Below, one piece after another: positions 2,316 to 64,000 of a stretch of DNA of 64,000 nt. The notes under the pieces are model-generated. The model ran no database searches. It was not told where the DNA came from and saw nothing but the letters and a program-made list of their open reading frames with translations. How positions within the stretch are numbered: position 1 is the first letter of the stretch; each line of letters starts with the position of its first letter. The stretch comes from Ascidia mentula (Eukaryota; Chordata; Ascidiacea; Phlebobranchia; Ascidiidae): NCBI GenBank assembly GCA_947561715.1, contig OX387199.1:22821001-22885000 (forward strand). Direction: 5' to 3'. The translations under genes were made by a program, and so were the position numbers.

Positions 2316-3121
2316 TCAGGAAGCTCGTTTGGTTTGGCGTTCCAAAACTTTTTCAAGTTTCGAAATCTTGTAACTGAAAGGGCCTCGACCTCCAATGAAG
2401 GTGATTTTTCCATCCAAAATCATGTAAAGTCGTTCCGGCATCGCGCCGTACGCTCGATTCGCTTCATTGTTCATATTGTCGGCCAGCACGATGACGTCAC
2501 CCTTCAATACGTCATCGCTGAATACTTGGGCGGCGGCAAGACGGTCTTGGATGGTTTTGTGGGCGGGGTACTGATATTTGTTGCTCTTTCGTTTCCATCC
2601 ATCGATCGGATGGGATTCCATGATGTAAACTGTGATGAAGTCGGCTTTGTCGCTGTAAGTTTCAACCAATCGGATGAAGCGGTCAGTCTGCAACACAGGT
2701 TACGCTTGGTTTGGGACGTGAATGGTGTTAAGATCAAAACACAATGTTTTAAAGACAGTTATTATTTTGCTGGAGGTTCCCCTTAAATGATTGGGAATTA
2801 AATGAAACTCGCAATTAATGTAAATATCTAACCGGATTAATTCAAGATTCATTGCGGGATTGACAAAATTGTCTCAAGCTCTCACACATGCTGTAACCCC
2901 GCCCCATCCTCCACACAAACCTTCGCCATGAAATACTGTCATGTCGACGATCCGAAGTTCACCACCAGGGGGCGCCCCGGAGTCGCGCATTCGAGAAGTT
3001 TTATTTCCTTTCCAGTCCTGAGCATGTGGAGTTGCACGTCCGGGGCATCCCCGCCCACGGTGGTCACTCTGCTCGATTGAATTCGACGAAATTCCAACAG
3101 TGCGGTCACTACGTTGGCCAT
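2316..3121 (-). CDS. DIO: iodothyronine deiodinase, selenoprotein (two exons seen, N-terminal anchor exon not found)
   Basis: Thioredoxin-fold selenoenzyme that removes iodine from thyroid hormones. Exon 2921-3121 encodes GRPLVVNFGSST, then TGA (2939-2941), then QYFMAK; this is the deiodinase active site NFGSCT-Sec-PPF, so the TGA is selenocysteine. The usual Cys two before Sec is Ser here. After a 233-base intron, exon 2316-2687 reads in phase through TDRFIRLVETYSDKADFITVYI, the catalytic ESHPIDGW block (family: EEAHPSDGW), DRLAAAQVF, AYGAMPERLYMILDGKI and GGRGPFSYKISKLEKVLE. The stop TGA is at 2316-2318. The visible part is about 190 residues against about 250-270 for the family. The missing part is the N-terminal membrane anchor. 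ATG 3119-3121 directly follows a cag acceptor, so I think an upstream exon exists in 3200-4500 but could not identify it. Start uncertain, identity firm. Confidence 0.9.
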
Positions 3122-5153: not shown

Positions 5154-5711
5154 TTACTGACTGAGAAGTTGCTTCAGCTCATCCGGTATTTCATCTTCCT
5201 CGGGCATGTTGTCGGTCTCAGCTGTGAAGAAAAAACAAATTTTATCAACCTTGCTCTGTGTGTGGAACATTCATCGTTAACAACCTGCAGGCTGCGTCGT
5301 AAACAAGCAAGTGGTCAATTGTAAAAGATTCCCTATTGCACCGGATATATAAGATTGGTGGTCGAGCATTCTTATCAAGAAATCGAGAATAAAGGAAAAC
5401 ACGAGTAATGAAAGTTCCAGTCGGATGCACACGATGTTAAGTTTGAATCGAACAATTCTTTATCCCACAATGAGCTAATCGGATAGTTTAAGCATTCCAC
5501 GCGATTCAAGTGATCGTGAATGTAAGAATAGATTTGCTTGCTACTCACCTTCTTGTTGGTCGTATCGACGTCGCCTGGCGTAATATCGTCGTCGCCTGGC
5601 GTAATATCGTCGTCGCCTGGCGTAGTATCTTCGCCTACGAGCCCAAAGCCAACCTTCGCTGACCGTGCTGGCCACGAGAAGAAGTCCAAGAATGAGAAGA
5701 AGCTTGTTCAT
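5154..5711 (-). CDS. Arg/Tyr-heptad cationic peptide precursor, copy 1 (four heptads)
   Basis: Small secreted precursor, 76 residues, two coding exons (5549-5711 and 5154-5221) plus a 5' UTR exon starting at 5771. Exon 2 encodes the signal peptide MNKLLLILGLLLVASTVSEG, then WLWA and four Arg-rich units of the type RRRRYYA, ending YDQQE. The core has 16 arginines and 2 acidic residues. The last exon joins through a split codon and encodes an acidic tail (ETDNMPEEDEIPDELKQLLSQ split after residue 20), with eight acidic residues, which could neutralise the core until it is cut off. Signal, cationic core and acidic tail is the layout of ascidian antimicrobial peptide precursors (Ci-MAM-A, Ci-PAP-A, styelins, clavanins), but the sequence itself is not one I recognise. 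A poly(A) signal lies at 5109-5114. Unlike other copies it lacks the intron minisatellite, and its intron 2 and 3' flank are unrelated to theirs. Confidence 0.75.
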
Positions 5712-5770
5712 GTTCTGCAAATAGTAAGTATTAGACGTCGATCGAGTTGCGAGTGAATAAGCTCACTTAC

Positions 5771-5830
5771 CGATCTGTTGTCCGATACAAACTGTCCAAT
5801 CCCCTGTAATCATTTACTTTTATAAACGTT
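5771..5830 (-). promoter_or_regulatory. TATA promoter and 5' UTR exon of peptide copy 1
   Basis: Minus strand TATAAAAG at 5817-5824 sits about 30 bases before the probable start of a noncoding exon (from about 5805 down to 5771) that ends in a consensus gtaagt donor. A 56-base intron then leads to the exon with the ATG, whose acceptor is tttgcag at 5715. Confidence 0.7.
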
Positions 5831-5890
5831 TCACTGAAAACTTCCCACCAATTTACTTCAAAATTCCTGATAAACTTCCGTGAAGTTGAA

Positions 5891-6416
5891 ATGATTACGC
5901 GAATTCCTGGGACTTTATTTCCTCTGATGGGATTTCCGCTGTTGGCCGCACAATCTGTTCCAGCTTGCAAATATCATGGTGTATCTCGCGGAAGGAAGAG
6001 GTTACAAAGAACAATTTGTCTAAATATTAATCCTAATTTTCCTGTAACCAGGGTTGCAACCACAAAAATATGCTCTCTGCATTTTGATGCCGAAATTTAT
6101 TTGTATGTGATGACGTAAGTCAGAAACAAGCACGTTTACAGAAATAAGCAGATTTGTATCTTCCAAGACACTGCTTGTAAAAATAAACAGAAATCTTAGA
6201 ACTAATGTAACGCTACCCTGTCTACAATAAACCACATGTGTGTGCAAAATGACTGGGTTTCTTTCAACAATATTGTGGCTGTCGTGGTGATGCAACCACG
6301 CAGGAAAAACAACAAAACTAATCTTCGAATTCTGCCAACATGGATTGAAGCAAAATTAGGATATCCAGGAAAGAAGCTGAGGATATTGCGTTTATTCTGG
6401 AAGTTTCAAGCTTAGA
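5891..6416 (+). pseudogene. possible two-exon gene divergent from peptide copy 1, broken
   Basis: An open frame from ATG 5891 runs 75 codons to a gtaagt donor at 6114-6119. A second frame after tttctttca at about 6266 could add about 48 codons (QPRRKNNKTNLRILPTW and so on). Near the end of the first exon TTKICSLHFDAE recalls the C-x2-H-F end of a THAP zinc finger, but the earlier Cys pair and Trp are not convincing. In this unit the acceptor is caa rather than cag. Units 2 and 3 keep the acceptor; unit 4 has small indels in both parts. Probably a decayed exon pair or chance. Confidence 0.25.
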
Positions 6417-6687
6417 GTTCCACAGTAAAGCCAAACTTTTACGAAACAAAGTTTGAATCCCTTAGCTATAAGTTTTAGAAGTGCCCAAAATAATTCCAGA
6501 CTCGGCTTATTTCTCGCACAGATCGAACAAATTTTATAATTTCAACACAAATTCTCTGTGGCGACCTTTTCATCTAAAGTAACCTCCACCCACGTGACTG
6601 TGGGTTATTTACAACCGGTTTATACAAAGTGAACAAATATGTTTACTTAATTTAAGGATGGCACACGTTCCCTGCATGCAGAACTAA

Positions 6688-8055
6688 CAAACTTCCTATG
6701 ATATTGGTTGGGAATATTCGGCATATAGTGATTTTGGACACCGCCCTCCTGTATACGTTCACTTTTATTTACACTTTAATTTACACTAGAATCGTAATGT
6801 ATAAATTCCATTCCACCTGATGCCATAGGTTGCATAGCCGCTGTGGCCACTAAATGCACGTTCCATGCATGCAGCACTTAACCCAGCCACCTATATTTGT
6901 CATTGCTACGCTTAGAAATACAAAATCTTTAGTATGTGCAATGCCTTTAATTTGGTGCAAGTTGCAATCCAGTCCGTAAACCTAAGTGTCCACGCTAAAC
7001 TTGTCCTGCAGAAAGTTGGGGTCCTCGGTCTGAACACAAGGCAGGAAGATCCACTCACGAATAAATCTGTTTCCACTGCTTTCGTGAATTTCCATACTCG
7101 AAAAATTTCGGGATTTCGTCGTTAACATTCACAGTCGTTAGAAATGTGTGAACATAAAATACGAAACCGCAAGATGACAAAGTTTAGAATTGCATTGAAA
7201 CAACAGCTGCAAAGTGACATTCGCACATGCAAGACAACAATCGTTTCGGCTTCACTGATGGATATTTCGCTGCATTTTAGCTTTTTACAAACTTGTAGAG
7301 GGCAAAACGGAACAAAAGAACGCAGAATTGCATGATGTTTCTGTTGCTTCCAGGCATAATGTGTTTCAATAACATCACGTGATTTTACAAGCGGTGTTAG
7401 CGTTATTTTTTCGTTTGTTTCGTTTTCTTGGTGTTAGTTGTGTGCTGTACCTGTATCATTACCCTGAGAAAGCCTTGCTGGATAACAGGCGAAACGTCAG
7501 TTAATACAAGTTACGTTTTTAATGTGCCAGAAGAACAGACTAATAGAATACAGTAACGCATCTTGCTGCCACATGGCAAGGCAGAATCGCCATAACTGCG
7601 AAGGTCCTGACTTGACGGTCTCAGCTATCGTATACAGATCATTATACAGGTTCACTGGCATTGCAGCTTGATCATCCACTTTTCCCGAAGTACAGGCGAG
7701 ATCTGAAAAATCAAGCTTCCGGTGAGATTTGAACTCACAACCCTGTGCTTACTCAACGCTCCACCGACTGAACTACAGAAAAAATAATTGTAAAAGTTGA
7801 TGAGTTGTGAATGAGATTGTGGATTGATTTCTAGTTTTGTGAATTGGTTTTCTTTACTTTAAGCTGATCCAAACGTATCTGTTTAACAAACTTCCTATGA
7901 TATTGGTTGGGAATATTCGGCATATAGTGGTTTTGGACACCGCCCTCCTAAATACGTTCATTTTCTTACACTTTGATTTACACTAGAATCGTAATGTATA
8001 ACTTTCACTTATTACCATAGTTAGCATAACGCTGTGGCCGCTAAATGCTGAACTA
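6688..8055. repeat. inserted 1.2-kb block flanked by direct copies of a 170-bp segment, unit 1
   Basis: A segment beginning aacaaacttcctatgatatt and running through ggacaccgccctcct and cgtaatgtata occurs at 6688-6856 and again, about 85-90% alike, at 7885-8055. The same pair occurs in units 2 and 3. Unit 4 has the segment only once (16405-16565), so the DNA between the two copies (6857-7884) is extra there. It contains a tRNA-like SINE piece and a cgaaacgtcag repeat motif but no credible gene. Confidence 0.75.
7716..7780 (-). repeat. tRNA-derived SINE fragment, family 1 (unit 1)
   Basis: On the minus strand CTGTAGTTCAGTCGGTGGAG resembles a tRNA D-arm with A box. GGGTTGTGAGTTCAAATCTC carries a B box, followed by ACCGG. 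The anticodon stem is not tRNA-like. The same sequence recurs in units 2 and 3 and, diverged, at 18207-18276, so it is a mobile or carried-along SINE piece. Confidence 0.6.
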
Positions 8056-8342
8056 CCCACATTTCCCAGCGCCCTCGATTCTTTAGAACCTCCTGTATTA
8101 TTTCAAACGCGCTGTAGGAGTTTAAGTCAACCCAAAACTATTTTGGAAAACGTCATCAAACCGAAATTGTAACAATTATTTTCAAAATTAAACTTAATAA
8201 CTGTGGCCAAATTTATCTTGTAGAAACATAAACTAAATCTCAACAGAAACCAGAAATCAAGCAGAGGATTTTCAGGTGCAAGAAGTGAATTTATTTTGTT
8301 TTCATAACGAAACAAAAAGTCATTTTTGATTCCATGTCGATA

Positions 8343-8931
8343 TTAATGACTGAGAAGTTCTTTCAGCTCATCCGGTATTTCATCTTCTTGGGGCTTGTTA
8401 TCAGTCTCAGCTGTGAAGAAAATAAAAAGATTTTGATTCGGGAGTTCTTTGTAAGAAACGAGCATAAATAATACGTCATATGAAACAGTAAATTTCAGTG
8501 ATATTTTTGCAGTGATAAGTTCCGTTAATTCGTTATTGGATTTTCGTAGTCGTATCTCTCAATATGGAGGCGGTACATCAGCACGAAATGTCAATAAACT
8601 GGCATTGCTTGACTGGAAAATATGCACTGTAGGTGTGCACTGCAGATGTGCACTGTAAATGTGCACTGTAGATGTGCACTATAGATGTGCACTGTAGATG
8701 TGCACTGTAAGTGTGCACTGTAGATGTGCACTGTAAGTGTGCACTGTAGATGTGCACTGTAGATGTGCACTGTGGAGATGAAAACTTACCTTCTTGCTGG
8801 TCATAATATCGTCGTCGCCTGGCGTAATATCGTCGTCGCCTGGCGTAGTATCTCCTACGAGACCAAAGCCAACCTTCGCTGACCGTGCTGGCCACGAGAA
8901 GAAGTCCAAGAATGAGAAGAAGCTTGTTCAT
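8343..8931 (-). CDS. Arg/Tyr-heptad cationic peptide precursor, copy 2
   Basis: 69-residue secreted precursor from exons 8790-8931 and 8343-8410, spliced through gtaagt and ttcacag borders. The signal peptide MNKLLLILGLLLVASTVSEG is identical to copy 1. The core is WLWSRRRYYARRRRYY then ARRRRYYDQQE, with 11 arginines, six tyrosines and two tryptophans. The tail AETDNKPQEDEIPDELKELL plus SH is acidic and probably amphipathic. The core repeats every seven residues because the DNA repeats every 21 bases. The family role is inferred to be haemocyte or epithelial antimicrobial defence from the precursor layout; binding of nucleic acid or of another polyanion is an alternative. AATAAA lies at 8290-8295, about 50 bases past the stop. 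The promoter is identical to those of copies 3 and 4. Confidence 0.78.
8622..8775. repeat. 13-bp GTGCAC minisatellite in intron 2 of copy 2, 12 units
   Basis: Twelve head-to-tail copies of gtgcactgtagat with variants (gtaagt, ataga, gtaaat). The last unit runs into the splice donor of exon 2. On the coding strand each unit reads atctacagtgcac, so each carries an acceptor-like acag. Confidence 0.95.
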
Positions 8932-8990
8932 GTTCTGCAAATAGTAAGTATTAGACGTCGATCGAGTTGCGAGTGAATAAGCTCACTTAC

Positions 8991-9050
8991 CGATCTGTTG
9001 TCCGATACAAACTGTCCAATCCCCTGTTAGCCTTTACTTTTATAAACGTT
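8991..9050 (-). promoter_or_regulatory. TATA promoter and 5' UTR exon of peptide copy 2
   Basis: TATAAAAG on the minus strand at 9037-9044. The noncoding exon ends at 8991 with donor gtaagt, and its sequence is the same as in copies 1, 3, 4 and 6 apart from a few bases near the start site. Confidence 0.7.
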
Positions 9051-9110
9051 TCACTGAAAACTTCCCACCAATTTACTTCAAAATTCCTGATAAACTTCCG
9101 TGAAGTTGAA

Positions 9111-9636
9111 ATGATTACGCGAATCCCTAGGACTTTATTTCTTCTGATGGGATTTCCGCTGTTGGCTGCACAATCTGTTCCAGCTTGCCAACATTATCGT
9201 GTATCTCGCGGAAGGAAGAGGTTACAAAGAACAATTTGTCTAAATATTAATCCTAATTTTCCTGTAACCAGGGTTGCAACCACAAAAATATGCCCTCTGC
9301 ATTTTGATGCCGAAAGTTATTTGTATGTGATGACGTAAGTCAGAAACAGGCACGTTTACAGAAATAAGCAGATTTGTATCTTCCAAGACACTGCTTGTAA
9401 AAATAAACAGAAATCTTAGAACTAATGTAACGCTACCCTGTCTACAATAAACCACATGTGTGTGCAAAATGACTGGGTTTCTTTCAGCAATATTGTGGCT
9501 GTCGTGGTGATGCAACCACGCAGGAAAAACAACAAAACTAATCTTCGAATTCTGCCAACATGGATTGAAGCAAAATTAGGATATCCAGGAAAGAAGCTGA
9601 GGATATTGCGTTTATTCTGGAAGTTTCAAGCTTAGA
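9111..9636 (+). other. possible divergent two-exon frame in unit 2 (intact)
   Basis: Same layout as at 5891. The first frame 9111-9335 leads to a gtaagt donor and the second frame follows tttctttcag at about 9487, ending TTCTGGAAGTTTCAAGCTTAG. Spliced it would encode about 123 residues rich in Arg/Lys near the end, with THAP-like CSLHF-type residues (here CPLHF). Because the older unit 4 copy does not keep the frame, coding is doubtful. Confidence 0.25.
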
Positions 9637-10934
9637 GTTCCACAGTAAAGCCAAACTTTTACGAAACAAAGTTTGAATCCCTTAGCTATAAGTTTTAGAA
9701 GTGCGCAAAATAATTCCAGATTCAACTTATTTCCCGCACAGATCGAACAAATTTTATAATTTCAATATAAATTCTCTGTGGCGACCTTTTCATCTAAAGT
9801 AACCTCCAACCACGTGACTGTGGGTTATTTACAACCGGTTTATACATAGTGAACAAATATGTTTACTTAATTTAAGGATGGCACACGTTCCCTGCATGCA
9901 GAACTAACAAACTTCCTATGATGTTGGTTGGGAATATTCGGCATATAGTGATTTTGGACACCGCCCTCCTGTATACGTTCACTTTTATTTACACTTTAAT
10001 TTACACTAGAATCGTAATGTATAAATTCCATTCCACCTGATGCCATAGGTTGCATAGCCGCTGTGGCCACTAAATGCACGTTCCATGCATGCAGCACTTA
10101 ACCCAGCCACCTATATTTGTCATTGCTACGCTTAGAAATACAAAATCTTTAGTATGTGCAATGCCTTTAATTTGGTGCAAGTTGCAATCCAGTCCGTAAA
10201 CCTAAGTGTCCACGCTAAACTTGTCCTGCAGAAAGTTGGGGTCCTCGGTCTGAACACAAGGTAGGAAGATCCACTCACGAATAAATCTGTTTCCACTGCT
10301 TTCGTGAATTTCCATACTCGAAAAATTTCGGGATTTCGTCGTCAACATTCACAGTGGTTAGAAATGTGTGAACATAAAATACGAAACCGCAAGATGACAA
10401 AGTTTAGAATTGCATTGAAACAACAGCTGCAAAGTGACATTCGCACATGCAAGACAACAATCGTTTCGGCTTCACTGATGGATAATTCGCTGCATTTTAG
10501 CTTTTTACAAACTTGTAGAGGGCAAAACGGAACAAAAGAACGCAGAATTGCATGATGTTTCTGTTGCTTCCAGGCATAATGTGTTTCAATAACATCACGT
10601 GATTTTACAAGCGGTGTTAGCGTTATTTTTTCGTTTGTTTCGTTTTCTTGGTGTTAGTTGTGTGCTGTACCTGTATCATTACCCTGAGAAAGCCTTGCTG
10701 GATAACAGGCGAAACGTCAGTTAATACAAGTTACGTTTTTAATGTGCCAGAAGAACAGACTAATAGAATACAGTAACGCATCTTGCTGCCACATGGCAAG
10801 GCAGAATCGCCATAACTGCGAAGGTCCTGACTTGACGGTCTCAGCTATCGTATACAGATCATTATACAGGTTCACTGGCATTGCAGCTTGATCAGGCACT
10901 TTTCCCGAAGTACAGGCGAGATCTGAAAAATCAA

Positions 10935-11000
10935 GCTTCCGGTGAGATTTGAACTCACAACCCTGTGCTTACTCAACGCTCCACCGACTGAACTACAGAA
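10935..11000 (-). repeat. tRNA-derived SINE fragment, family 1 (unit 2)
   Basis: Same A-box/B-box piece as at 7716, carried along in the amplified unit; it follows the same 170-bp segment order as unit 1. Confidence 0.6.
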
Positions 11001-11562
11001 AAAATAATTGTAAAAGTTGATGAGTTGTGAATGAGATTGTGGATTGATTTCTAGTTTTGTGAATTGGTTTTCTTTACTTTAAGCTGATCCAAACGTATCT
11101 GTTTAACAAACTTCCTATGATATTGGTTGGGAATATTCGGCATATAGTGGTTTTGGACACCGCCCTCCTAAATACGTTTATTTTCTTACACTTTGATTTA
11201 CACTAGAATCGTAATGTATAACTTTCACTTATTACCATAGTTAGCATAACGCTGTAGCCGCTAAATGCTGAACTACCCACATTTCCCAGCGCCCTCGATT
11301 CTTTAGAACCTCCTGTATTATTTCAAACGCGCTGTAGGAGTTTAAGTCAACCCAAAACTATTTTGGAAAACGTCATCAAACCGAAATTGTAACAATTATT
11401 TTCAAAATTAAACTTAATAACTGTGGCCAAATTTATCTTGCAGAAACAGAAACTAAATCTCAACAGAAACCAGAAATCAAGCAGAGGATTTTCAGGTGCA
11501 AGAAGTGAATTTATTTTGTTTTCATAACGAAACAAAAAGTCATTTTTGATTCCATGTCGATA

Positions 11563-12200
11563 TTAATGACTGAGAAGTTCTTTCAGCTCATCCGGTATTT
11601 CATCTTCTTGGGGCTTGTTATCAGTCTCAGCTGTGAAGAAAACAAAAAGATTTTGATTCGGGAGTTCTTTGTAAGAAACGAACATAAATAATACGTCATA
11701 TGAAACAGTAAATTTCAGTGATATTTTTGCAGTAAGTTCCGTTAATTCGTTATTGGATTTTCGTAGTCGTATCTCTCAATATGGAGGCGGTACATCAGCA
11801 CGAAATGTCAATAAACTGGCATTGCTTGACTGGAAAATATGCACTGTAGATGTGCACTATAGATGTGCACTGCAGATGTGCACTGTAGATGTGCACTGTA
11901 GATGTGCACTATAGATGTGCACTGTAAATGTGCACTGTAGATGTGCACTATAGATGTGCACTGTAGATGTGCACTGTAAGTGTGCACTGTAGATGTGCAC
12001 TGTAAGTGTGCACTGTAGATGTGCACTGTAGATGTGCATTGTGGCGATGAAAACTTACCTTCTTGCTGGTCATAATATCGTCGTCGCCTGGCGTAGTATC
12101 GTCGTCGCCTGGCGTAGTATCTCCTACGAGACCAAAGCCAACCTTCGCTGACCGTGCTGGCCACGAGAAGAAGTCCAAGAATGAGAAGAAGCTTGTTCAT
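11563..12200 (-). CDS. Arg/Tyr-heptad cationic peptide precursor, copy 3
   Basis: 69 residues, exons 12059-12200 and 11563-11630; the protein is identical to copy 2. The middle heptad differs from copy 2 only by a synonymous change (TAC for TAT). Poly(A) signal at 11510-11515. Its intron 2 has the longest minisatellite of the array. Identity of protein with variation in intron length supports true separate copies kept alike by conversion or selection rather than a simple assembly repeat. Confidence 0.78.
11839..12045. repeat. 13-bp GTGCAC minisatellite in intron 2 of copy 3, 16 units
   Basis: Sixteen units of the same 13-bp repeat as in copy 2, with internal order partly shared with copies 2 and 4 (the last seven units match), so the tract grew in its middle and distal part. 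Confidence 0.95.
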
Positions 12201-12259
12201 GTTCTGCAAATAGTAAGTATTAGACGTCGATGGAGTTGCGAGTGAATAAGCTCACTTAC

Positions 12260-12320
12260 CGATCTGTTGTCCGATACAAACTGTCCAATCCCCTGTCAAC
12301 CTTTACTTTTATAAACGTTT
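12260..12320 (-). promoter_or_regulatory. TATA promoter and 5' UTR exon of peptide copy 3
   Basis: TATAAAAG on the minus strand at 12306-12313; noncoding exon ends at 12260 with gtaagt. Confidence 0.7.
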
Positions 12321-12379
12321 CACTGAAAACTTCCCACCAATTTACTTCAAAATTCCTGATAAACTTCCGTGAAGTTGAA

Positions 12380-12907
12380 ATGATTACGCGAATTCCTGGG
12401 ACTTTATTTCCTCTGATGGGATTTCCGCTGTTGGCTGCACAATCTGTTCCAGCTTGCCAACATTATCGTGTATCTCGCGGGAGGAAGAGGTTACAAAGAA
12501 CAATTTGTCTAAATATTAATCCTAATTTTCCTGTAACCAGGGTTGCAACCACAAAAATATGCTCTCTGCATTTTGATGCCGAAAGTTATTTGTATGTGAT
12601 GACGTAAGTCAGAAACAGGCACGTTTACAGAAATAAGCAGATTTGTATCTTCCAAGACACTGCTTGTAAAAATAAACAGAAATCTTAGAACTAATGTAAC
12701 GCTACCCTGTCTACAATAAACCACATGTGTGTGCAAAATGACTGGGTTTCTTTCAGCAATATTGTGGCTGTCGTGGTGATGCAACCACGCAGGAAAAACA
12801 ACAAAACTAATCTTCGAATTCTGCCAACATGGATTGAAGCAAAATTAGGATATCCAGGAAAGAAGCTGAGGATATTGCGTTTATTCTGGAAGTTTCAAGC
12901 TTAGAGT
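12380..12907 (+). other. possible divergent two-exon frame in unit 3 (intact)
   Basis: Third copy of the frame described at 5891, starting ATG 12380, donor at 12603-12608, acceptor tttctttcag before 12757. Nearly identical to unit 2. No independent support for translation. Confidence 0.25.
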
Positions 12908-14203
12908 TCCACAGTAAAGCCAAACTTTTACGAAACAAAGTTTGAATCCCTTAGCTATAAGTTTTAGAAGTGCCCAAAATAATTCCAGACTCGGCTTATT
13001 TCTCGCACAGATCGAACAAATTTCATAATTTCAACACAAATTCTCTGTGGCGACCTTTTCATCTAAAGTAACCTCCACCCACGTGACTGTGGGTTATTTA
13101 CAACCGGTTTATACAAAGTGAACAAATATGTTTACTTAATTTAAGGATGGCACACGTTCCCTGCATGCAGAACTAACAAACTTCCTATGATATTGGTTGG
13201 GAATATTCGGCATATAGTGATTTTGGACACCGCCCTCCTGTATACGTTCACTTTTATTTACACTTTAATTTACACTAGAATCGTAATGTATAAATTCCAT
13301 TCCACCTGATGCCATAGGTTGCATAGCCGCTGTAGCCACTAAATGCACGTTCCATGCATGCAGCACTTAACCCAGCCACCTATATTTGTCATTGCTACGC
13401 TTAGAAATACAAAATCTTTAGTATGTGCAATGCCTTTAATTTGGTGCAAGTTGCAATCCAGTCCGTAAACCTAAGTGTCCACGCTAAACTTGTCCTGCAG
13501 AAAGTTGGGGTCCTCGGTCTGAACACAAGGCAGGAAGATCCACTCACGAATAAATCTGTTTCCACTGCTTTCGTGAATTTCCATACTCGAAAAATTTCGG
13601 GATTTCGTCGTCAACATTCACAGTGGTTAGAAATGTGTGAACATAAAATACGAAACCGCAAGATGACAAAGTTTAGAATTGCATTGAAACAACAGCTGCA
13701 AAGTGACATTCGCACATGCAAGACAATAATCGTTTCGGCTTCACTGATGGATAATTCGCTGCATTTTAGCTTTTTACAAACTTGTACAGGGCAAAACGGA
13801 ACAAAAGAACGCAGAATTGCATGATGTTTCTGTTGCTTCCAGGCATAATGTGTTTCAATAACATCACGTGATTTTACAAGCGGTGTTAGCGTTATTTTTT
13901 CGTTTGTTTCGTTTTCTTGGTGTTAGTTGTGTGCTGTACCTGTATCATTACCCTGAGAAAGCCTTGCTGGATAACAGGCGAAACGTCAGTTAATACAAGT
14001 TACGTTTTTAATGTGCCAGAAGAACAGACTAATAGAATACAGTAACGCATCTTGCTGCCACATGGCAAGGCAGAATCGCCATAACTGCGAAGGTCCTAAC
14101 TTGACGGTCTCAGCTATCGTATACAGATCATTATACAGGTTCACTGGCATTGCAGCTTGATCAGGCACTTTTCCCGAAGTACAGGCGAGATCTGAAAAAT
14201 CAA

Positions 14204-14269
14204 GCTTCCGGTGAGATTTGAACTCACAACCCTGTGCTTACTCAACGCTCCACCGACTGAACTACAGAA
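14204..14269 (-). repeat. tRNA-derived SINE fragment, family 1 (unit 3)
   Basis: Same piece as at 7716 and 10935. Confidence 0.6.
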
Positions 14270-14831
14270 AAAATAATTGTAAAAGTTGATGAGTTGTGAA
14301 TGAGATTGTGGATTGATTTCTAGTTTTGTGAATTGGTTTCCTTTACTTTAAGCTGATCCAAACGTATCTGTTTAACAAACTTCCTATGATATTGGTTGGG
14401 AATATTCGGCATATAGTGGTTTTGGACACCGCCCTCCTAAATACGTTCATTTTCTTACACTTTGATTTACACTAGAATCGTAATGTATAACTTTCACTTA
14501 TTACCATAGTTAGCATAACGCTGTGGCCGCTAAATGCTGAACTACCCACATTTCCCAGCGCCCTCGATTCTTTAGAACCTCCTGTATTATTTCAAACGCG
14601 CTGTAGGAGTTTAAGTCAACCCAAAACTATTTTGCAAAACGTCATCAAACCGAAATTGTAACAATTATTTTCAAAATTAAACTTAATAACTGTGGCCAAA
14701 TTTATCTTGTAGAAACATAAACCAAATCTCAACAGAAACCAGAAATAAAGCAGAGGATTTTCAGGTGCAAGAAGTGAATTTATTTTGTTTTCATAACGAA
14801 ACAAAAAGTCATTTTTGATTCCATGTCGATA

Positions 14832-15433
14832 TTAATGACTGAGAAGTTCTTTCAGCTCATCCGGTATTTCATCTTCTTGAGGCTTGTTATCAGTCTCAGC
14901 TGTGAAGAAAATAAAAAGATTTTGATTCGGGAGTTCTTTGTAAGAAACGAGCATAAATAATACGTCATATGAAACAGTAAAGTTCAGTGATATTTTTGCA
15001 GTGATAAGTTCCGTTAATTCGTTATTGGATTTTCGTAGTCGTATCTCTCAATATGGAGGCGGTACATCAGCACGAAATGTCAATAAACTGGCATTGCTTG
15101 ACTGGAAAATATGCACTGTAGAAGTGCACTATAGATGTGCACTGCAGATGTGCACTGTAAATGTGCACTGTAGATGTGCACTATAGATGTGCACTGTAGA
15201 TGTGCACTGTAAGTGTGCACTGTAGATGTGCACTGTAAGTGTGCACTGTAGATGTGCACTGTAGATGTGCACTGTGGAGATGAAAACTTACCTTCTTGCT
15301 GGTCATAATATCGTCGTCGCCTGGCGTAATATCGTCGTCGCCTGGCGTAGTATCTCCTACGAGACCAAAGCCAACCTTCGCTGACCGTGCTGGCCACGAG
15401 AAGAAGTCCAAGAATGAGTAGAAGCTTGTTCAT
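14832..15433 (-). CDS. Arg/Tyr-heptad cationic peptide precursor, copy 4
   Basis: 69 residues, exons 15292-15433 and 14832-14899; protein identical to copies 2 and 3, with silent changes in the signal peptide (CTA for CTT) and tail (CCT for CCC). Poly(A) signal 14779-14784. The spacer upstream of its promoter (15550-16860) is the more divergent short form without the 1.2-kb insertion. Copy 4 is therefore where the recently amplified left part of the array meets the older right part. Confidence 0.78.
15110..15276. repeat. 13-bp GTGCAC minisatellite in intron 2 of copy 4, 13 units
   Basis: Thirteen units; the last seven have the same variant order as copies 2 and 3. Confidence 0.95.
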
Positions 15434-15492
15434 GTTCTGCAAATAGTAAGTATTAGACGTCGATGGAGTTGCGAGTGAATAAGCTCACTTAC

Positions 15493-15550
15493 CGATCTGT
15501 TGTCCGATACAAACTGTCCGATCCCCTGTTAGCCTTTACTTTTATAAACG
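15493..15550 (-). promoter_or_regulatory. TATA promoter and 5' UTR exon of peptide copy 4
   Basis: TATAAAAG on the minus strand at 15539-15546; noncoding exon ends at 15493 with gtaagt. Confidence 0.7.
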
Positions 15551-16404
15551 TTTCACTGAAAACTTCCCATCAATTTACTTCAAAATTCCTGATAAACTTC
15601 CGTGAAGTTGAAATAATTACGCGAATTCCTAGGACTTTATTTCCTCTGATGGGATTTCCGCTGTTGGCTGCACAATCTGTTCCAGCTTGCCAACATTATC
15701 GTGTATCTCGCGGAAGGAAGAGGTTACAAAGAACAATTTGTCTAAATATTAATCCTATAATTTTCTTGTAACCAGGGTTGCAACCACAAAAATATGCTCT
15801 CTGCATTTTGATGCCGAAATTTATTTGTATGTGATGACGTAAGTCAGAAACAAGCGCGTTTACAGAAATAAGCAGATTTGTATCTTCCAAGACACTGCTT
15901 GTAAAAATAAACAGAAATCTTAGAACTAATGTAACGCTACCCTGTCTACAATAAACCACATGTGTGTGCAAAATGACTGGGTTTCTTTCAGCAATATTGT
16001 GGCTGTCGTGCTGATGCAACCATGCAGGAAAAAACAAAACTAATCTTCGAATTCTGCCAACATGGATTGAAGCAAAATAAGGATATCCAGGAAAGAAGTT
16101 GAGGATATTGTTTTGATTCTGGAAGTTTCAAGTCTGGAGTTCCGCAGTAAAGCCAAACTTTTACGAAACTAAGCGTGAATCCCTTAGCCAAAGTTTTAGA
16201 ATTATGCAAAATAATTCCAGACCAGACTAATTTCTCGGACAGATCAAACAAATTTTATAATTTCAACATAAATTCATTGTGGCAACCTTTCATCAAACTA
16301 ACTTACAACCACGTGACTGTGGGTTATTTACAACCGGTTTGTACAAATTGAACAAATTCATTGTTAATTTAAGGATGGCAGACGTTCCATGCATGCAGAA
16401 CTAA

Positions 16405-16565
16405 CAAACTTCTTTGAAATTGGTTAGGAATATTCGGCTTGGGTTAATTTTGGACAGCGCCCTCCTCAACCAATTAATTTCTTACACATTAATTTACACT
16501 AAAATTGTAATGTATAAATTACACCTAATACCATAGGTTGCAGAACCGCTGTGGCCGCTAAAACT
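16405..16565. repeat. single copy of the 170-bp segment in unit 4 spacer
   Basis: Aligns with both flanking copies seen in units 1 to 3 (shared aatattcgg, ttttggaca, cgccctcct, tgtggccgctaaa). Here it is directly followed by the acatttcccagcgccctcga block, showing the spacer without the 1.2-kb addition. Confidence 0.75.
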
Positions 16566-16859
16566 TGAACTGTCCACATTTCCCAGCGCCCTCGATTCTT
16601 CAGAACCTCCTGTGTTATTTGAAACGCGCTGCAGGAGTTTGAGTCGACCCCAAACTAGTTTGGAAAACGTCATCAAACCGAAATTGTAACAATTATTTTC
16701 AACATTAAACTGAACAACCGGTGCCAACTTTATCTTGTAGAAACATAAACTGAATCTTAACAGAAACAACGAATAAACCAGAGGATTTTCAGGTGCAAGA
16801 AGTAAATTTATTTTGTTTTCTTGACGAAACAAAAAGTCAGTTTTTATTGCAAGTCGATT

Positions 16860-16930
16860 TTAATGACTGAGAAGTTCTTTCAGCTCATCCAGTATTTCAT
16901 CTTGTTGGGGCATCATGTTGTCATTCTCAG
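16860..16930 (-). pseudogene. peptide copy 5, last exon only
   Basis: An intact last exon encodes ENDNMMPQQDEILDELKELL plus SH and stop, one residue longer than other copies (a second Met) and with Leu for Pro before DEL. Upstream on the minus strand there is a degenerate minisatellite (17020-17095), then unrelated DNA. The signal/core exon, exon 1 and promoter are absent. Compared with copy 6 this is a deletion, so copy 5 cannot make the peptide by itself. Confidence 0.75.
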
Positions 16931-17118
16931 CTGTGAAGAAAATAAAGGATTTTTATTCGGGAGTTCTTTGTATGTTAAGAACATAATTATTTCGTATACA
17001 CGAGGAGCACTTTATATCTGCACTGTAGATGTGCACTGTACATTTGCACTATGTACGTGCACTATAGATATGTACACCAGAGGTGCACTGAGCATATGGT
17101 GAAATAAACGATCACGAT

Positions 17119-18425
17119 TGGAGGTGTTTTGATTTACTCGGAAGAAATCATTGCGCTTCCAACGGTGGGAAGTTTGTTTGGAGCTTAAACGAGATTTCAG
17201 AAACGTTGTTGTCAGAGTTTGCGAAAGTTTTTGGTCAGTGCCATTATCCTTCCTGTCGCACGCGATTGAAATATTTCGAGGAAAACCTCTAAAGATCGTA
17301 TAATTCCGGGAAAGATACAGGACTTAACTGTTTTAATCTTTCGTAGAAATACACGCGGCTCATGTTGAATATTTCCAAGAACTAAAAACAAAGAGACAGA
17401 CGATCAGCGTTAGTGTTTTTCTTTTCAAAACAAAATTGTCAATTTCGCCTGCAGACATCGTCAGTTTCAAATGATCGTCTGTCACTCTATTTTATACTCC
17501 CGGTTTATCCTGACACAAAATAAATAATACAGTCGGTCAACACAGACGTTTTCTGTTGTTGGAGCATGATGCGTAGAAATGAATGTGTAACTGAGGGATC
17601 TTTCATTAAACCACAAATGACTGTGCCCTTAAGCGAATCATTTTTCTGCAAATATATCCTGAAGTTTGAGCTGACTTTTTAGTTCAATTTGTTCCCGGCA
17701 CCAAGTAGCTTCCTAATTCAAAGCGCCCAAAACCCACTAAAACTGCCCAAAACTGGACTTAAATTCCCCCCAGTTTAAAGCACATGCATATATGCTCACT
17801 CAACCGTATAATCAACCCCCATGCGCCACTGGTTGCTCTGTGACGTCCAACTTATTGTGACAGATGGCCACACGGTGGGCATTTCCCGCCGGCAAAATTA
17901 GAAATAACAATATGCGTTCTTAATGCAAAAGTTGCTAAAAAAGGGAAAAACTTCTTACGGACTAAACAGTAAGTGATTCCAATTTTTTTGAAAAACAATC
18001 TGTTTTGTTTGGTTGATGTACAAACGTCATTATCTCTTATCATTGTATATCTCGTTGTCATGGTGACTCTGGGAGGCATTTCGTCACAAAAAAGCCAATG
18101 GATTTGTTTTATCATGAGGTATTCATGCTTGGCAGCCCAGACAATGCAGCCTAGCTGGATCAGCCACATTTTCCTGACATGTCGGAGCGAGATTCGAAAT
18201 ATTAAGTTCCCGGTGAAGTTTGAACTCACGACCCTGGGCTAAACCAGGCCCAACGCTCTACCAACTGAGCTACAGGAGCTCAGTGGTTTCACGGGGTATA
18301 TTGTTGCCAAGGTACACTGGTGCGCAGGCGCACAACTACCCAGGCAACCTTCACATATACGTGCTCAGTGGGGCGATCTTGCCTATCATGCCATTGCCTG
18401 TAATATTACTGGATTTGTTTTATTC
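17119..18425. other. non-array DNA between peptide copies 5 and 6
   Basis: Starts with ggaggtgttttgatttac, which also follows copy 6 at about 19350, so it is the promoter-side flank of a unit. 18015-18118 matches 19555-19660 (tcttatcattgt, gtgactctgggaggcatttc, ggatttgttttat). 18207-18276 is tRNA-like. No gene recognised. Confidence 0.5.
18207..18276 (-). repeat. tRNA-derived SINE fragment, family 1, most tRNA-like copy
   Basis: On the minus strand CCTGTAGCTCAGTTGGTAGA carries a near-perfect A box, and GTCGTGAGTTCAAACTTCAC a B box. GCCTGGTTTAGCCCAGG gives a pseudo anticodon arm. It lacks an acceptor stem that pairs, so I call it a SINE head, not a tRNA gene. Confidence 0.55.
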
Positions 18426-18644
18426 GCGTTAACCCCAAACTGTTTTGGAAAACGTCATCAAACCGAAATTGTAACAATTATTTTCAACATTAAACTGAAC
18501 AACCGGTGCCAACTTTATCTTGTAGAAACATAAACTGAATCTTAACAGAAACAACGAATAAACCAGAGGATTTTCAGGTGCAAGAAGTAAATTTATTTTG
18601 TTTTCTTGACGAAACAAAAAGTCAGTTTTTATTGCAAGTCGATT

Positions 18645-19156
18645 TTAATGACTGAGAAGTTCTTTCAGCTCATCCGGTATTTCATCTTGTTGGGGCATGT
18701 TGTCATTCTCAGCTGTGAAGAAAATAAAAAGATTTTGATTCGTGAGTTTTTGAAAGAAAAGAACATAAATAATACGTCATATAAAACAGTAAAGTTCAGA
18801 GATATTTTTGCAATAAGTTCCGTCAATTCGTTATTATATTTTCTTAGTCGTATCTCTCTTTGGAGGCGGTTCATCAGCACGAGATGTCAATAAACTCGCA
18901 TTGCTTAGTTGGAGAATGTGCGCTGTAGATGTGCACTGTAGATGTGCACTGCAGATGTGCACTGTAAATGTGCGCTGTAGATGTGCACTATATATGTGCA
19001 CTGTGGAGGTGAAAACTTACCTTGTTGCTGGTCGTATCGTCGTCTGGCGTAATATCGTCGTCGCCTGGCGTAGTATCTCCTACGAGACCAAAGCCAACCT
19101 TCGCTGACCGTGCTGGCCACGAGAAGAAGTCCAAGAATGAGTAGAAGCTTGTTCTT
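18645..19156 (-). pseudogene. peptide copy 6, start codon lost
   Basis: Exons at 19021-19156 and 18645-18712 keep splice sites, signal peptide and tail, and the TATA promoter and 5' UTR exon are present. The initiator ATG found in the other copies is AAG here (19154-19156), and no upstream in-frame ATG is seen in the 5' UTR exon. The core is shorter and altered (WLWSRRRYYARRRRYY then ARRRYDQQQ), with 10 arginines. The tail reads ENDNMPQQDEIPDELKELL plus SH. Either a recent pseudogene or a copy using a non-ATG start; the intact frame suggests the loss is recent. Confidence 0.65.
18915..19010. repeat. 13-bp minisatellite in intron 2 of copy 6, 7 units
   Basis: Seven units, including gtgcgc and tatat variants; the shortest tract of the array. 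Confidence 0.9.
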
Positions 19157-19204
19157 GTTCTGCAAATAGTGAGTATTAGACGTCGATCGAGTTGCGAGTG
19201 AATA

Positions 19205-19275
19205 AGCTCACTTACCGATCTGTTGTCCGATACAAACTGTCCAATCCCCTGTCAGCCTTTACTTTTATAAACGTT
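19205..19275 (-). promoter_or_regulatory. TATA promoter and 5' UTR exon of peptide copy 6
   Basis: TATAAAAG on the minus strand at 19262-19269 and the same noncoding exon with gtaagt donor as in the other copies, so the copy is probably still transcribed. Confidence 0.65.
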
Positions 19276-19680
19276 CCACTCAAAACTTCCCATCAATTTA
19301 CTTCAATATTCCTGATAAACTTCCGTGAACTTTGTGGCCAATATTAACCGGACTCGGAGGTGTTTTGATTTACTTGGAAAGAAATTATTCTGGTGCATTT
19401 GAAATACGCACTTTTTCATGGCTTTTTTAATGCAAAAAAGTTTGTTGAAACATTTCTATAAACTTTCATTCCCCGGTCGTTATTCAATGAACGATTTGAT
19501 TATGAAATATTCGGTTTCATTAAAATTATATGGAAAGAAATTTGTGGCCAGTATTTCGTCACAAACGTCATTCTATCTTATCATTGTGCTTGTAGTTGTC
19601 ATAGTGACTCTGGGAGGCATTTCGTCAAATCAAAACGAAAGGATTTGTTTTATTCTTGGTAAGTAGGTCCACGGTCGACT

Positions 19681-19756: not shown

Positions 19757-22700
19757 TCAGGTAAATTCAAGACGCAAACTTGGAAACTCTGCTTCCTGTT
19801 CGAGAAATTTTGCCGCGCGTAAAAGAATTCCTTCCTCTGTCCTCGGCGCCATTAACTGGAGGGCGAGGGGATGTCCCCTTTCGTCAATACGGATAGGAAC
19901 ACTGACCCCCGGAACCCCGGCCATGTTGGTTGGCTGGGTATAAATGTCATGTTCTGCGCATCGAGATTGGTTGTTTTCTTGAATAAAATCGCGATATTTC
20001 GGTGCGGAGGAGATCGACACCGGAGCCAACAGGACGTCAACACCCCTGGTTGTTTGGGGGGAAAACACGGATCCAAAATCCTCCACAATCAACCGACGAA
20101 CCCGCAACGCTTTCTCGTAATATTTCTCGTAGTTTCTGCAAAACACAGCCAGGATGCAACAGGAAAAAGTACGATGACAGGATTTGCACCAAAGAAATTA
20201 AATAACATTCAAAAAAATAAGTTTTTTTCTTGTACTTTACAGCTAATTGTTCAAATATATTTTGTCACCATAAAATCAATAACTTTCAACCAAAAACAAA
20301 CCCTTCAGAATAAACTCAAATTACAAAAAACTTGAGTTAGTAGATATGTGATACGCCGGTGATTTAAACACAAACACGCATTTATGACGTATTTCCTACT
20401 TCTTTAACAGGAAGAAATTCCCCGCAATAATCCTTTGCTTGACAGTCGTCCCAAACCCTTCCGTTCTAGTGTTTACCAACATTTCGTTGAAGTTTGAACC
20501 GTCGGCCCGATGACCGAATTCCACTCCGTCGTATCTGAAACAACGTATTTTTCTGTTGGTAAAAACGTAATGGTGAAAATGTTATGGTGGCTGTTGTACC
20601 TTGACATGTTCGATGCAACGTCGCCACAGCTCAGGGCGTAGTAACACAAAATTGAATGCTGGGTATTTGGAAGGCTTACCTGGAATGTTGGAAATGTTAC
20701 AAGTTTTAACCGTTAAAATTCCATCAGCGCGGAGTAATACTAAGAAAATTTACTGGTTTAAGAATGTTCAGTAAAACAAACACATAACACACAAAATTGC
20801 CAGAATATTACCCCCAGCTGATTAATATATGATGTGAGTCATATTAGTATATTGTTGGATTTTTCTACTTACAGGGACAACTTTAGCTCCAGCATCACTA
20901 AATTTTCCAGCTGCCCAATCCCAAGCTTCCACAACCTCGGGTGAGAGGTTTGGGCCGTGATATTCCTGAATAATCTCAGTATGAACAACAATTTGTGTAA
21001 AGAAAGATAAAAGCCTATCGTTTGGCATGTAGTTGAAACTGGTGAGCATTAGAAAAAATTATAATCAAACTAGCTTTAATGTTTTGAACAGTGGAGTTTT
21101 TTAAGGCTTACAACTTTGCTAATTTTTCTGGTTATCAGGTTTCTTCACCTTATGATCAAGTTGAGTTATCAACATTTACCTTTGGTATACCCACGACTAA
21201 TCCCTTGACATCTTCAACTTCTTTTAACTTTACGGTTGGAATAGAACTTTGTGCCGTTGTGGAGTCCATGGGGTCATGGCCAGCTAACATATCTAAGAAA
21301 CACCTTTCATTACTACTGGATGTTAGACAGGTGGGAAAAATAAATTATACTTTGTAATATTAAGCATTATTTATCATAACCTTCACAAATGCGCCTTTGT
21401 TAAGGTTATGATAAATAATGCCTAATATTTAAAAGTATAATTTCATTATATTCAGTAACCCCATGTACACTACAAAAATGTTGCTCACTAAACACTAATG
21501 CAGCATCATCAACACATTTTGCAAAAATCCCAGGTGTGTCCATGGCATTAGCGAGACTGATAAGTCCATGACGTGATAAACATCCGTACGATGGCTTTAA
21601 ACCAACAATTCCACAGAAGGAGGCAGGGCCTCGCACAGATCCACCTGTGTCAGAACCCAGTGAACTGGAACACACAAAATGTAAATAGGGGAGGTAATTG
21701 TGTAGCACAATAAAAAATACTTATTCCTGCTATTGTCAGGGCAAATATCAAGGTTTTATTAATCAAAGATAATTGGCCTTGATATGACTTAAATTCAAGC
21801 AAGGGTTGTCATGAGTTTAATGTTAATTTATATCCATGCAATTACCAAAAAGTAAAGTCAAATTTTAACAACAACTTGTTGTAAGAGTCCTAATTAATAA
21901 AAAAGACTTACAAGAAACAGCTTCCAGTAGCAACGGCGACAGCGCTACCTCCAGAACTCCCACCAACAATCAACCAATCATTTTCCTCCTCAGATTTTGA
22001 GAAATTGTACTTCCAGGGGTTTTTCACAGGACCAAATGCTGAGTCGACTGAACCAGACCTGTTGAGATTATCAATGTAAAAGAAATATATATTTAAGGAG
22101 CTTGCGATTCCTGCACTTTCAAAAATGTGGTACAGAGCAGAAGTTAGAAAACATTGTAACCATATGGTGAGAATTGGGAGCGGTTTCCTGCAATTGTTTG
22201 ACAAAGTTTTGGAAAAATATAATAACATCTACATTACATATAATGCATGTAAACTAAATTGTTAACAGAAATTGAACAACACTATTTGTCACATGTTTTA
22301 AACTATTTTTGAGCAATAAACTAATCAAAACCATCAAAAATTAGCAAAATTTAAACATAAACTAAAATAAACATCCTTACAAACCCCATTGCAAATTCAT
22401 CCATATTAGTTTTTCCCATCAAAGTTCCACCAGCATCAACCAACTTATCCACAAGAGTCGCATTGTAAGTTGGAACAAACTCCCTCAGCGTTTTGGATGC
22501 ACAGGTTGTGGGGTGGGATTTTGTGCAAAAGTTGTCCTTCACAGCAAAAGGCAATCCCATCAGTGTAGACCTGCAGGTAATTGCACATTTACTAATGTTG
22601 TTTTGCAATCTTTGGCATCACGTGTATGATACCAGCATTACACACTTGAAAAGAAAGTATATTACTAACTAACTACTTTATAAGGTTCAACACAGACGTC

Positions 22701-44054: not shown

Positions 44055-64000
<19,946 letters not shown>

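What the first reader, a model, noticed from the sequence alone, without database searches (positions are those of the whole stretch)
5154..19340. Amplified family of Arg/Tyr heptad-repeat secreted peptides, a candidate new ascidian antimicrobial family
Four intact precursors share a signal peptide, a core of WLW plus repeated ARRRRYY, and an acidic tail on its own exon. This is the precursor layout of ascidian haemocyte antimicrobial peptides, yet the core is unlike any member I know. The residues chosen (Trp, Arg, Tyr) are those known to be modified in styelin D (bromotryptophan, dihydroxyarginine, DOPA), so the peptides could be DOPA-bearing. Function is inferred from layout and composition only.
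Basis: partly seen in the sequence, partly recalled or inferred. Interest (0 to 1): 0.92.

Follow-up and report, generated by a model that had tools for sequence, protein, structure and literature searches.

The report
Sea-squirt Arg/Tyr repeat defence-peptide gene family
A sea squirt carries dozens of duplicated genes for small secreted peptides made of alternating arginine and tyrosine blocks, related to peptides of another sea squirt that kill microbes, and they may be the genetic source of the strongly modified tyrosine peptides long known from sea-squirt blood.

Summary
It holds four intact minus-strand genes, a fifth without its ATG and a lone tail exon. Each of the five has a TATA box, a 5'UTR exon, one exon with signal peptide plus WLW-(A/S)RRR(R)YY repeats, an acidic tail exon and AATAAA. 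Selection on the frame is purifying (dN/dS 0.07 in the signal, 0.22 in the core). Genome searches and a script that sought an MNK-like signal plus Arg runs gave 36 loci in the regions fetched, one cluster with Trp-rich, partly amphipathic cores. The core is not unprecedented: Ciona KH.C1.640 (RRRRYDQQ junction, acidic tail, antimicrobial, LPS-induced) and KH.C7.94 resemble it beyond regional shuffles. So the immune-peptide reading is supported, as a tyrosine-enriched variant of a described ascidian kind. The cores are not amphipathic helices. DOPA/TOPA modification is untested, but attractive: tunichromes and morulin Pm come from relatives of this species, and cutting at the frequent Tyr|Asp junction would leave the C-terminal tyrosine those compounds need. 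No expression data were available.

The parts
5819..5824 (-). TATAAA of copy 1 (54 nt before the first intron; same spacing in copies 2-5 at 9039-9044, 12308-12313, 15541-15546, 19264-19269)
   Evidence: coordinates worked out from the spacing
5771..5795 (-). copy 1 exon 1, 5'UTR, ending GATCG|GTAAGT; its 5' end is only an estimate from the TATA box
5549..5714 (-). copy 1 exon 2: signal peptide MNKLLLILGLLLVASTVSEG + core WLWARRRRYYARRRRYYARRRRYYARRRRY + DQQE; phase-1 donor (signal cleavage site is my reading; no predictor was run)
5154..5221 (-). copy 1 exon 3: acidic tail AETDNMPEEDEIPDELKQLLSQ and stop; AATAAA 39 nt downstream
8790..8934 (-). copy 2 exon 2, core WLWSRRRYYARRRRYYARRRRYY
8343..8410 (-). 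copy 2 exon 3, tail AETDNKPQEDEIPDELKELLSH
12059..12203 (-). copy 3 exon 2, same protein as copy 2
11563..11630 (-). copy 3 exon 3, tail
15292..15436 (-). copy 4 exon 2, same protein as copy 2
14832..14899 (-). copy 4 exon 3, tail
19021..19159 (-). copy 5 exon 2: start codon lost (AAG at the ATG position), otherwise open
18645..18712 (-). copy 5 exon 3, tail AENDNMPQQDEIPDELKELLSH
16860..16930 (-). remnant copy: lone acidic tail exon; the pattern scans show no core exon between it and copy 5
   Evidence: exact ends read by eye from the sequence rows (one search gives 16863-16943 for the matched stretch)

Best explanation
These are genes for secreted host-defence peptides, probably made by blood cells. 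A signal peptide (seen in the sequence) sends the precursor into the secretory path. The acidic tail probably neutralises the strongly cationic core until a protease cuts before the Asp of the ...RRRRY|DQQE junction, as the Ciona paper reports for styelins (inferred here). The freed core has an N-terminal aromatic patch (WLW, WWW, WFW) and blocks of three to four Arg alternating with two to four Tyr, charge +11 (copies 2-4) or +16 (copy 1). It would bind anionic microbial surfaces and insert its aromatic residues, probably not as an ordinary amphipathic helix (calculated). Recent tandem duplication would raise dosage. Tyr hydroxylation to DOPA or TOPA by haemocyte phenoloxidase, adding oxidative cross-linking, is plausible but unproven.
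For: Complete gene anatomy in the five window copies apart from the lost ATG of copy 5. Purifying selection on frame. A multi-locus family: matches of three exon-2 queries mostly begin at query residues 1-2, i.e. they include the signal peptide, while the cores differ widely; at C73:12.80-12.81 Mb are 6 loci, several with Trp-rich cores, of which the one scored (L048:5031) has a helical moment of 0.49 against a shuffle mean of 0.17, 1 of 2000 shuffles as high. A conserved signal with diverse cores is typical of antimicrobial families (recalled). Similarity to Ciona KH.C1.640 (copy 1: 2 and 3 of 2000 shuffles as high; C2c: 0 and 0) and KH.C7.94 (copy 1 and C2c: 0 and 0). Their synthetic peptides have MIC <3.125 uM and 6.25 uM against E. 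coli and S. aureus, and KH.C1.640 is LPS-induced in haemocytes (PMC7387483, passages).
Against: No transcript or peptide could be examined. Core helical moment is below the shuffle mean in all 7 repeat cores scored (0.14 vs 0.25 for copy 1). In the same Ciona paper two other peptides with Arg runs (KH.L63.9, KH.S1007.2) had no or weak activity on E. coli, and KH.C1.640 and KH.C7.94 peptides were negative on Pseudomonas aeruginosa; KH.C7.94 is not among the genes it reports as LPS-induced. The tested KH.C1.640 peptide stops before RRRRY. A Ciona KH.C1.640 query against the whole genome gave one weak hit elsewhere with two stops (E 0.028) and not this family, so orthology is not shown. Member C2d did not beat shuffles against KH.C1.640 or KH.C7.94 (586 and 139 of 2000), and copy 2 was weaker against KH.C1.640 (31 and 20 of 2000). 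No kB consensus in 1 kb upstream of the four intact copies. Intron 2 aligned, with many gaps, at 79-86% identity in the 7 between-cluster pairs and the signal region at 77-97%, so exon-over-intron conservation is not shown.
Confidence: 0.7

Rival explanations
1. The family encodes DOPA/TOPA (and bromotryptophan) polypeptides of morula cells of the morulin Pm kind. Tyrosines are hydroxylated, the C-terminal Tyr left by cutting Tyr|Asp is oxidatively decarboxylated to dehydrodopamine or dehydrotopamine, and the peptides cross-link wounds, parasites or tunic. It overlaps with the best explanation.
For: The genome fits Ascidia mentula, Ascidiidae. Morulin Pm (TOPA + 6-BrTrp; C-terminal dehydrotopamine in the review's text, dehydrodopamine in its table) is from Phallusia mammillata and tunichromes An/Pm from Ascidia nigra and P. 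mammillata (PMC3039461, passages); that Phallusia is in Ascidiidae is recalled. Window cores begin with Trp and end in Tyr if cut as proposed; 24 of 36 loci keep Tyr-Asp at the junction. Tyrosinase domains are present (16 exon matches).
Against: The review says tests have so far not shown antibacterial activity of morulin Pm. The flavin Trp-halogenase family PF04820 was not found, though haloperoxidases are another route (passage). 12 of 36 loci lack the YD junction, and not all cores begin with Trp.
Confidence: 0.3
2. Multi-peptide precursor: convertases cut at each RRRR and carboxypeptidases trim Arg, releasing YYA, YYY, YYYA and YYYY, i.e. ribosomal tunichromes.
For: Arg runs of exactly 4 are commonest (44 of 71 runs in 19 distinct cores, taken from 23 of the 36 loci). 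Tunichromes An and Pm are Tyr-Tyr-Tyr derivatives, and a 2010 review left a ribosomal or non-ribosomal origin open (PMC3039461, passages).
Against: Exactly YYY fills only 2 of 48 spacers; YYA fills 15, and no tunichrome in that review's table is YYA. The aromatic N-terminus and the YD junction are unexplained.
Confidence: 0.07
3. A secreted Arg/Tyr-rich structural or metal-handling peptide (tunic, adhesion, vanadium) with no antimicrobial role.
For: Composition suits cross-linking and chelation (inference); ascidian DOPA peptides are linked to tunic and wound repair (PMC10531651, passages).
Against: Relatives in Ciona kill microbes and one is LPS-induced; a sister cluster encodes Trp-rich cores, one of them shown amphipathic.
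Confidence: 0.1
4. Chance or decayed repeats, not genes.
For: One copy has lost its ATG, one is a lone tail exon, and one locus elsewhere (C2:792233) meets a stop after 37 aa.
Against: Conserved TATA, splice sites and poly(A) signal, and strong purifying selection.
Confidence: 0.02

Closest known systems
Ciona LCAMP KH.C1.640 (PMC7387483)
   Same: N-terminal W-rich segment, Arg runs with aromatics, RRRRYDQQ junction, acidic tail with EEDE; same order of parts; beats regional shuffles for 4 of 5 members tried, weakest for copy 2
   Different: Core shorter and not an iterated R4Y2 repeat; tail longer; only the WWLSRRRSSLFYWR part was tested; orthology not shown
Ciona LCAMP KH.C7.94 (PMC7387483)
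   Same: Iterated RRR-plus-aromatic blocks, tail ending DELMQMAE like DELMQLLA and DELKQLLS here (0-1 of 2000 shuffles for w1, w2, C2a1, C2c; not C2d)
   Different: Phe/Ile/Leu rather than Tyr between blocks; junction is FGD, not YDQ; not reported as LPS-induced
Ci-MAM family
   Same: Layout: signal, cationic core, acidic tail; several members (not Ci-MAM-A) have, by eye, an RRR..WN[EQ] junction resembling RRRRYDQ (Table 1)
   Different: Ci-MAM-A core is amphipathic (moment 0.59, 6 of 2000 shuffles); no similarity above shuffles to Ci-MAM-A; Ci-MAM-D only weakly to C2c and C2d
Styelins / botryllin
   Same: Ascidian haemocyte prepropeptides with a pro-piece; styelin D has brominated Trp at position 2 and four DOPA (passages)
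   Different: Styelins are Phe-rich, helical and amidated from a Gly; here no Gly precedes the tail and the core is not amphipathic; no sequence comparison was made
Morulin Pm and tunichromes
   Same: Ascidian blood-cell peptides built on Tyr (DOPA/TOPA), morulin also with Trp
   Different: Gene and sequence not available here; modification untested; tunichromes are mostly tripeptides

Membership tests
Ciona LCAMP type (KH.C1.640 / KH.C7.94) | signal peptide - cationic core - acidic C-terminal tail in a 50-100 aa precursor | tested here: met
   intact window precursors 69-76 aa, tail on own exon; the two C2a members are 103 aa
Ciona LCAMP type (KH.C1.640 / KH.C7.94) | sequence similarity of core plus tail beyond composition | tested here: met
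   for 4 of 5 members tried (w1, w2, C2a1, C2c; w2 weakest); C2d not; whole-genome query with KH.C1.640 did not return the family
Ciona LCAMP type (KH.C1.640 / KH.C7.94) | cationic amphipathic alpha-helix | tested here: not met
   moment at 100 degrees below shuffle mean in the 7 A. mentula repeat cores scored; the KH.C1.640 and KH.C7.94 peptides also fail this measure
Ciona LCAMP type (KH.C1.640 / KH.C7.94) | antimicrobial activity and haemocyte expression | not testable with these tools
   no RNA or peptide data held
Ci-MAM | similarity to Ci-MAM-A core and tail | tested here: not met
   w1 438 and 408 of 2000 shuffles as high; no member of 5 below 166 of 2000
Styelin | amphipathic helical mature peptide with C-terminal Gly for amidation | tested here: not met
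   styelin precursor facts from passages
Morulin / tunichrome DOPA-TOPA peptides | peptidyl DOPA/TOPA and C-terminal dehydrodopamine or dehydrotopamine | not testable with these tools
   needs mass spectrometry; the required C-terminal Tyr is available if cleavage is at Tyr|Asp (24 of 36 loci)
Morulin / tunichrome DOPA-TOPA peptides | sequence identity with the purified polypeptide | not tested
   the 1995 and 1997 Taylor papers are known only from a reference list
Pfam / PDB families | match to a described protein family | tested here: not met
   copies 1 and 2: Pfam only below cut-off; copy 1: PDB hits E>=0.39

The most novel reading that the evidence does not exclude
The family is the gene-encoded, ribosomal source of the ascidiid DOPA/TOPA/bromotryptophan polypeptides (morulin Pm class, and by further trimming perhaps tunichromes): N-terminal Trp, R4-Y2-4 blocks, and a Tyr|Asp cut that leaves the C-terminal Tyr which becomes dehydrodopamine or dehydrotopamine.
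Probability: 0.27. Interest if true: 0.88.

Novelty: new variant of a known kind. Interest (0 to 1): 0.6.

Why it matters
It gives many gene sequences, exact peptide masses and a species with public RNA-seq, so that a question a 2010 review left open, whether ascidian DOPA/TOPA peptides are made by ribosomes (PMC3039461, passages), becomes directly testable. It also links a plain Arg/Tyr block peptide, which is not an amphipathic helix, to a salt-tolerant antimicrobial lineage known from Ciona, and shows that kind of gene diversifying from R4Y2 repeats to Trp-rich cores behind similar signal peptides. Even if the modification idea fails, it is a large, freshly amplified candidate defence-peptide family whose repeat strings occur in no held paper.

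Tried and rejected
Rejected: amphipathic-helix mechanism for the repeat cores; Ci-MAM-A kinship; any Pfam or PDB family; chance ORFs; NF-kB sites as support (two forms of a 10-base consensus, none in 1 kb upstream of the four intact copies, one at -721 of copy 5); exon-over-intron conservation as proof (not shown); pure YYY-tunichrome precursor (2 of 48 spacers). The pooled tail ratio is not quoted because synonymous sites are saturated and the tail alignment is uncertain. Of the 10 pairs computed, the pooled test uses 2 that I chose as independent contrasts. The 20 comparisons carry no multiple-test correction. Structure prediction was not run: I judged that a low-complexity peptide would give a meaningless model.

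Limits of the locus count. The script accepts only frames that begin MNK/MIK-like (or copy 5), have a hydrophobic start and at least one RRR, so the shared start is partly by selection. It saw 17 sources (the window and 16 fetched regions); two of them, L051 and L052, fetched for weak hits, gave no locus; a signal-peptide-only relative at L017:6140 without Arg runs is left out. One search used 23 of the 36 loci.

Literature searches made: open-access PubMed Central only; only bear directly on this family. Strings ARRRRYY and RRRRYYA: 0 papers; RRRRYDQ: only PMC7387483; RRRRYYY: 12 papers, which by their titles are not about such peptides. No paper was read whole; I saw passages of PMC9966394, PMC3039461, PMC10531651, PMC10880069, PMC9395347, PMC4282715, PMC7387483, PMC11109543, PMC8659048 and PMC10608444.
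Full report
Names used below: w1-w5 are the window copies; C2a (C2:15.56 Mb), C2b (C2:3.62-3.63 Mb), C73a (C73:9.75 Mb), C2c (C2:790 kb) and C2d (C2:5.40 Mb) are other loci of the same genome.

What is there. The region holds five copies of one small gene on the minus strand, spaced 3.2-3.7 kb apart, plus a lone tail exon near 16.9 kb. Each of the five has TATAAA 54 nt before the first donor, a short 5'UTR exon ending GATCG|GTAAGT, a 56-nt intron, an exon with the signal peptide and core, a phase-1 donor, an intron of 308-428 nt, an acidic tail exon and AATAAA 39 or 47 nt after the stop. Copies 1-4 are intact at 76, 69, 69 and 69 aa; copies 2-4 encode the same protein; copy 5 has AAG at the ATG position. 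Repeat units 1-2 match at 98.5% over 2767 bp and units 2-3 at 97.2% over 3273 bp; unit 4 matches unit 3 at 91.7% over 1790 bp.

Where it is. The window is G000:C52:22821001-22885000 of a 195.8-Mb genome in 79 contigs. Contigs C2, C67, C73, C70 and C72 are 19,883,144, 22,722,200, 15,447,500, 21,170,000 and 19,661,885 bases, against 19.88, 22.72, 15.45, 21.17 and 19.66 Mb for chromosomes 2, 4, 9, 6 and 8 of Ascidia mentula kaAscMent1.1 (PMC11109543, passages and table). Not all fits to the base: that assembly has 197.0 Mb in 95 scaffolds, and its N50 and N90 scaffolds (by size chromosomes 6 and 9) are 21,171,019 and 15,452,589 bases, 1.0 and 5.1 kb longer than C70 and C73. So the species is inference, but five of the five lengths compared agree to 0.01 Mb. 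GH6 domains, expected of tunicate cellulose metabolism (recalled), are present (2 matches over cut-off, one with an inner stop).

Family size. Exon-2 queries found 20, 19 and 30 places at the thresholds used; the tool calls such counts lower bounds. In the regions fetched, 36 loci pass a script that asks for an MNK/MIK-like start, a hydrophobic stretch and at least one RRR; the common start is therefore partly selected, but the tblastn matches behind it mostly begin at query residues 1-2 too. Two fetched regions gave no locus. One locus (C2:792233) meets a stop after 37 aa. Of the 36, 24 have Tyr-Asp-[NQEA] at the core/tail junction. The other 12 are 6 loci at C73:12.80-12.81 Mb, four of an RRRRHVY group on C2, one on C67 with RRRSPVY repeats and C2:792233. 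Several of the C73 loci have cores such as GFIRGVKKWVGKATKWAGHVVKWAGHVSKW; acidic exons lie downstream, but their splice chain is not resolved.

Selection. Pooling two contrasts between clusters (w1-C2b1 and C2a1-C2c), signal peptide: 14.0 synonymous changes in 32.2 sites against 4.0 nonsynonymous in 87.8, dN/dS 0.07, Fisher p 1.1e-6; core: 15.3 in 35.8 against 13.7 in 108.2, dN/dS 0.22, p 4e-4. Arg is written with four or five codons in each of six cores tabulated, which fits blocks kept at the protein level rather than simple DNA repetition.

Grammar. In 19 distinct cores from 23 of the loci, 44 of 71 Arg runs are exactly four long and 14 are three long. Of 48 spacers between runs, YYA occurs 15 times, HVY 4, YYYA 3, YYY 2 and YYYY 2. 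Because spacer length varies, a strict heptad is not conserved; the blocks are. Helical moments of all seven repeat cores scored lie below their shuffle means (copy 1: 0.14 vs 0.25, 1594 of 2000 shuffles as high), whereas Ci-MAM-A (6 of 2000) and the one Trp-rich C73 core scored (1 of 2000) are amphipathic.

Relatives. Of 22 Ciona LCAMP candidates in PMC7387483 (passages and Table 1) I tested four, put together from the printed pieces. Shuffles (of the Ciona sequence, of the query) scoring as high, of 2000 each: KH.C1.640 with w1 2 and 3, w2 31 and 20, C2a1 4 and 5, C2c 0 and 0, C2d 586 and 581; KH.C7.94 with w1 0 and 0, w2 1 and 1, C2a1 0 and 0, C2c 0 and 0, C2d 139 and 210. Ci-MAM-D (KH.C1.1192) was weakly similar to C2c and C2d (18 and 23; 10 and 25), not to w1, w2 or C2a1; Ci-MAM-A to none. 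The paper reports MIC <3.125 uM for the KH.C1.640 peptide and 6.25 uM for KH.C7.94 against E. coli and S. aureus (both negative on P. aeruginosa), LPS induction of KH.C1.640, and no or weak E. coli activity for KH.L63.9 and KH.S1007.2, both with Arg runs. It also states that styelins are cut before Asp. Against me: the KH.C1.640 query did not recover this family from the genome.

How it probably works. A signal peptide is plain in the sequence (no predictor was run). Masking by the acidic tail, cleavage at Tyr|Asp and membrane attack are inferred from the Ciona and styelin precedents. Predicted mature window peptides start with WLW and end with Tyr.

DOPA/TOPA. A review (PMC3039461, passages) says that morulin Pm of Phallusia mammillata has TOPA, 6-bromotryptophan and a C-terminal dehydrotopamine residue (its table says dehydrodopamine), that tests have not shown it to be antibacterial, lists tunichromes of Ascidia nigra and Phallusia as Tyr-derived tripeptides, and leaves open whether synthesis is ribosomal. 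The window cores offer Trp at one end, Tyr blocks inside and Tyr at the other end, in an ascidiid. Tyrosinase domains exist in the genome (16 exon matches); the flavin Trp-halogenase family does not appear. This is the most novel reading and needs mass spectrometry.

Verdict. Real genes, a large and partly freshly amplified family, most likely secreted defence peptides; a new variant of the ascidian prepropeptide kind already seen in Ciona. No held paper contains the repeat strings searched. I could not examine expression or other ascidian genomes.

Noticed in passing
window 8623-8773, 11840-12042, 15112-15275, 18916-19004; also 17007-17069: A 13-bp minisatellite (TGCACTGTAGATG) sits in intron 2 of copies 2-5 and near the lone tail exon; none is listed in copy 1.
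   Followed up: partly
G000:C73:12795903-12808031 (loci L047, L048): Six loci with an MNK..LLLVDTDA signal peptide; several encode Arg runs plus Trp-rich cores (e.g. FIRGVKKWVGHAKKWAGHVVKWAGHVKKW, amphipathic by moment) with acidic exons downstream: antimicrobial candidates in their own right.
   Followed up: partly
G000:C2:7196206, 7198807, 7569170, 7571373 (loci L017, L050): A sister group with RRRRHVY-type repeats; very acidic tail exons were found for the first three.
   Followed up: partly
window 2319-2699 minus: Exon of an iodothyronine deiodinase (PF00837, E 1e-36).
   Followed up: no
window 19760-22617 minus: Amidase-family gene directly beside the cluster (PF01425, two exons matched).
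   Followed up: no
window 38518-38817 plus: Aminotransferase class I/II exon (PF00155, E 1.9e-4).
   Followed up: no
window 47676-55955 minus: Dynein heavy chain exons (PF03028, AAA_8, AAA_9).
   Followed up: no
window 18204-18280 minus: tRNA-like element (Rfam tRNA 42.2 bits; ARAGORN gives an odd 4-base anticodon), perhaps a SINE head.
   Followed up: no
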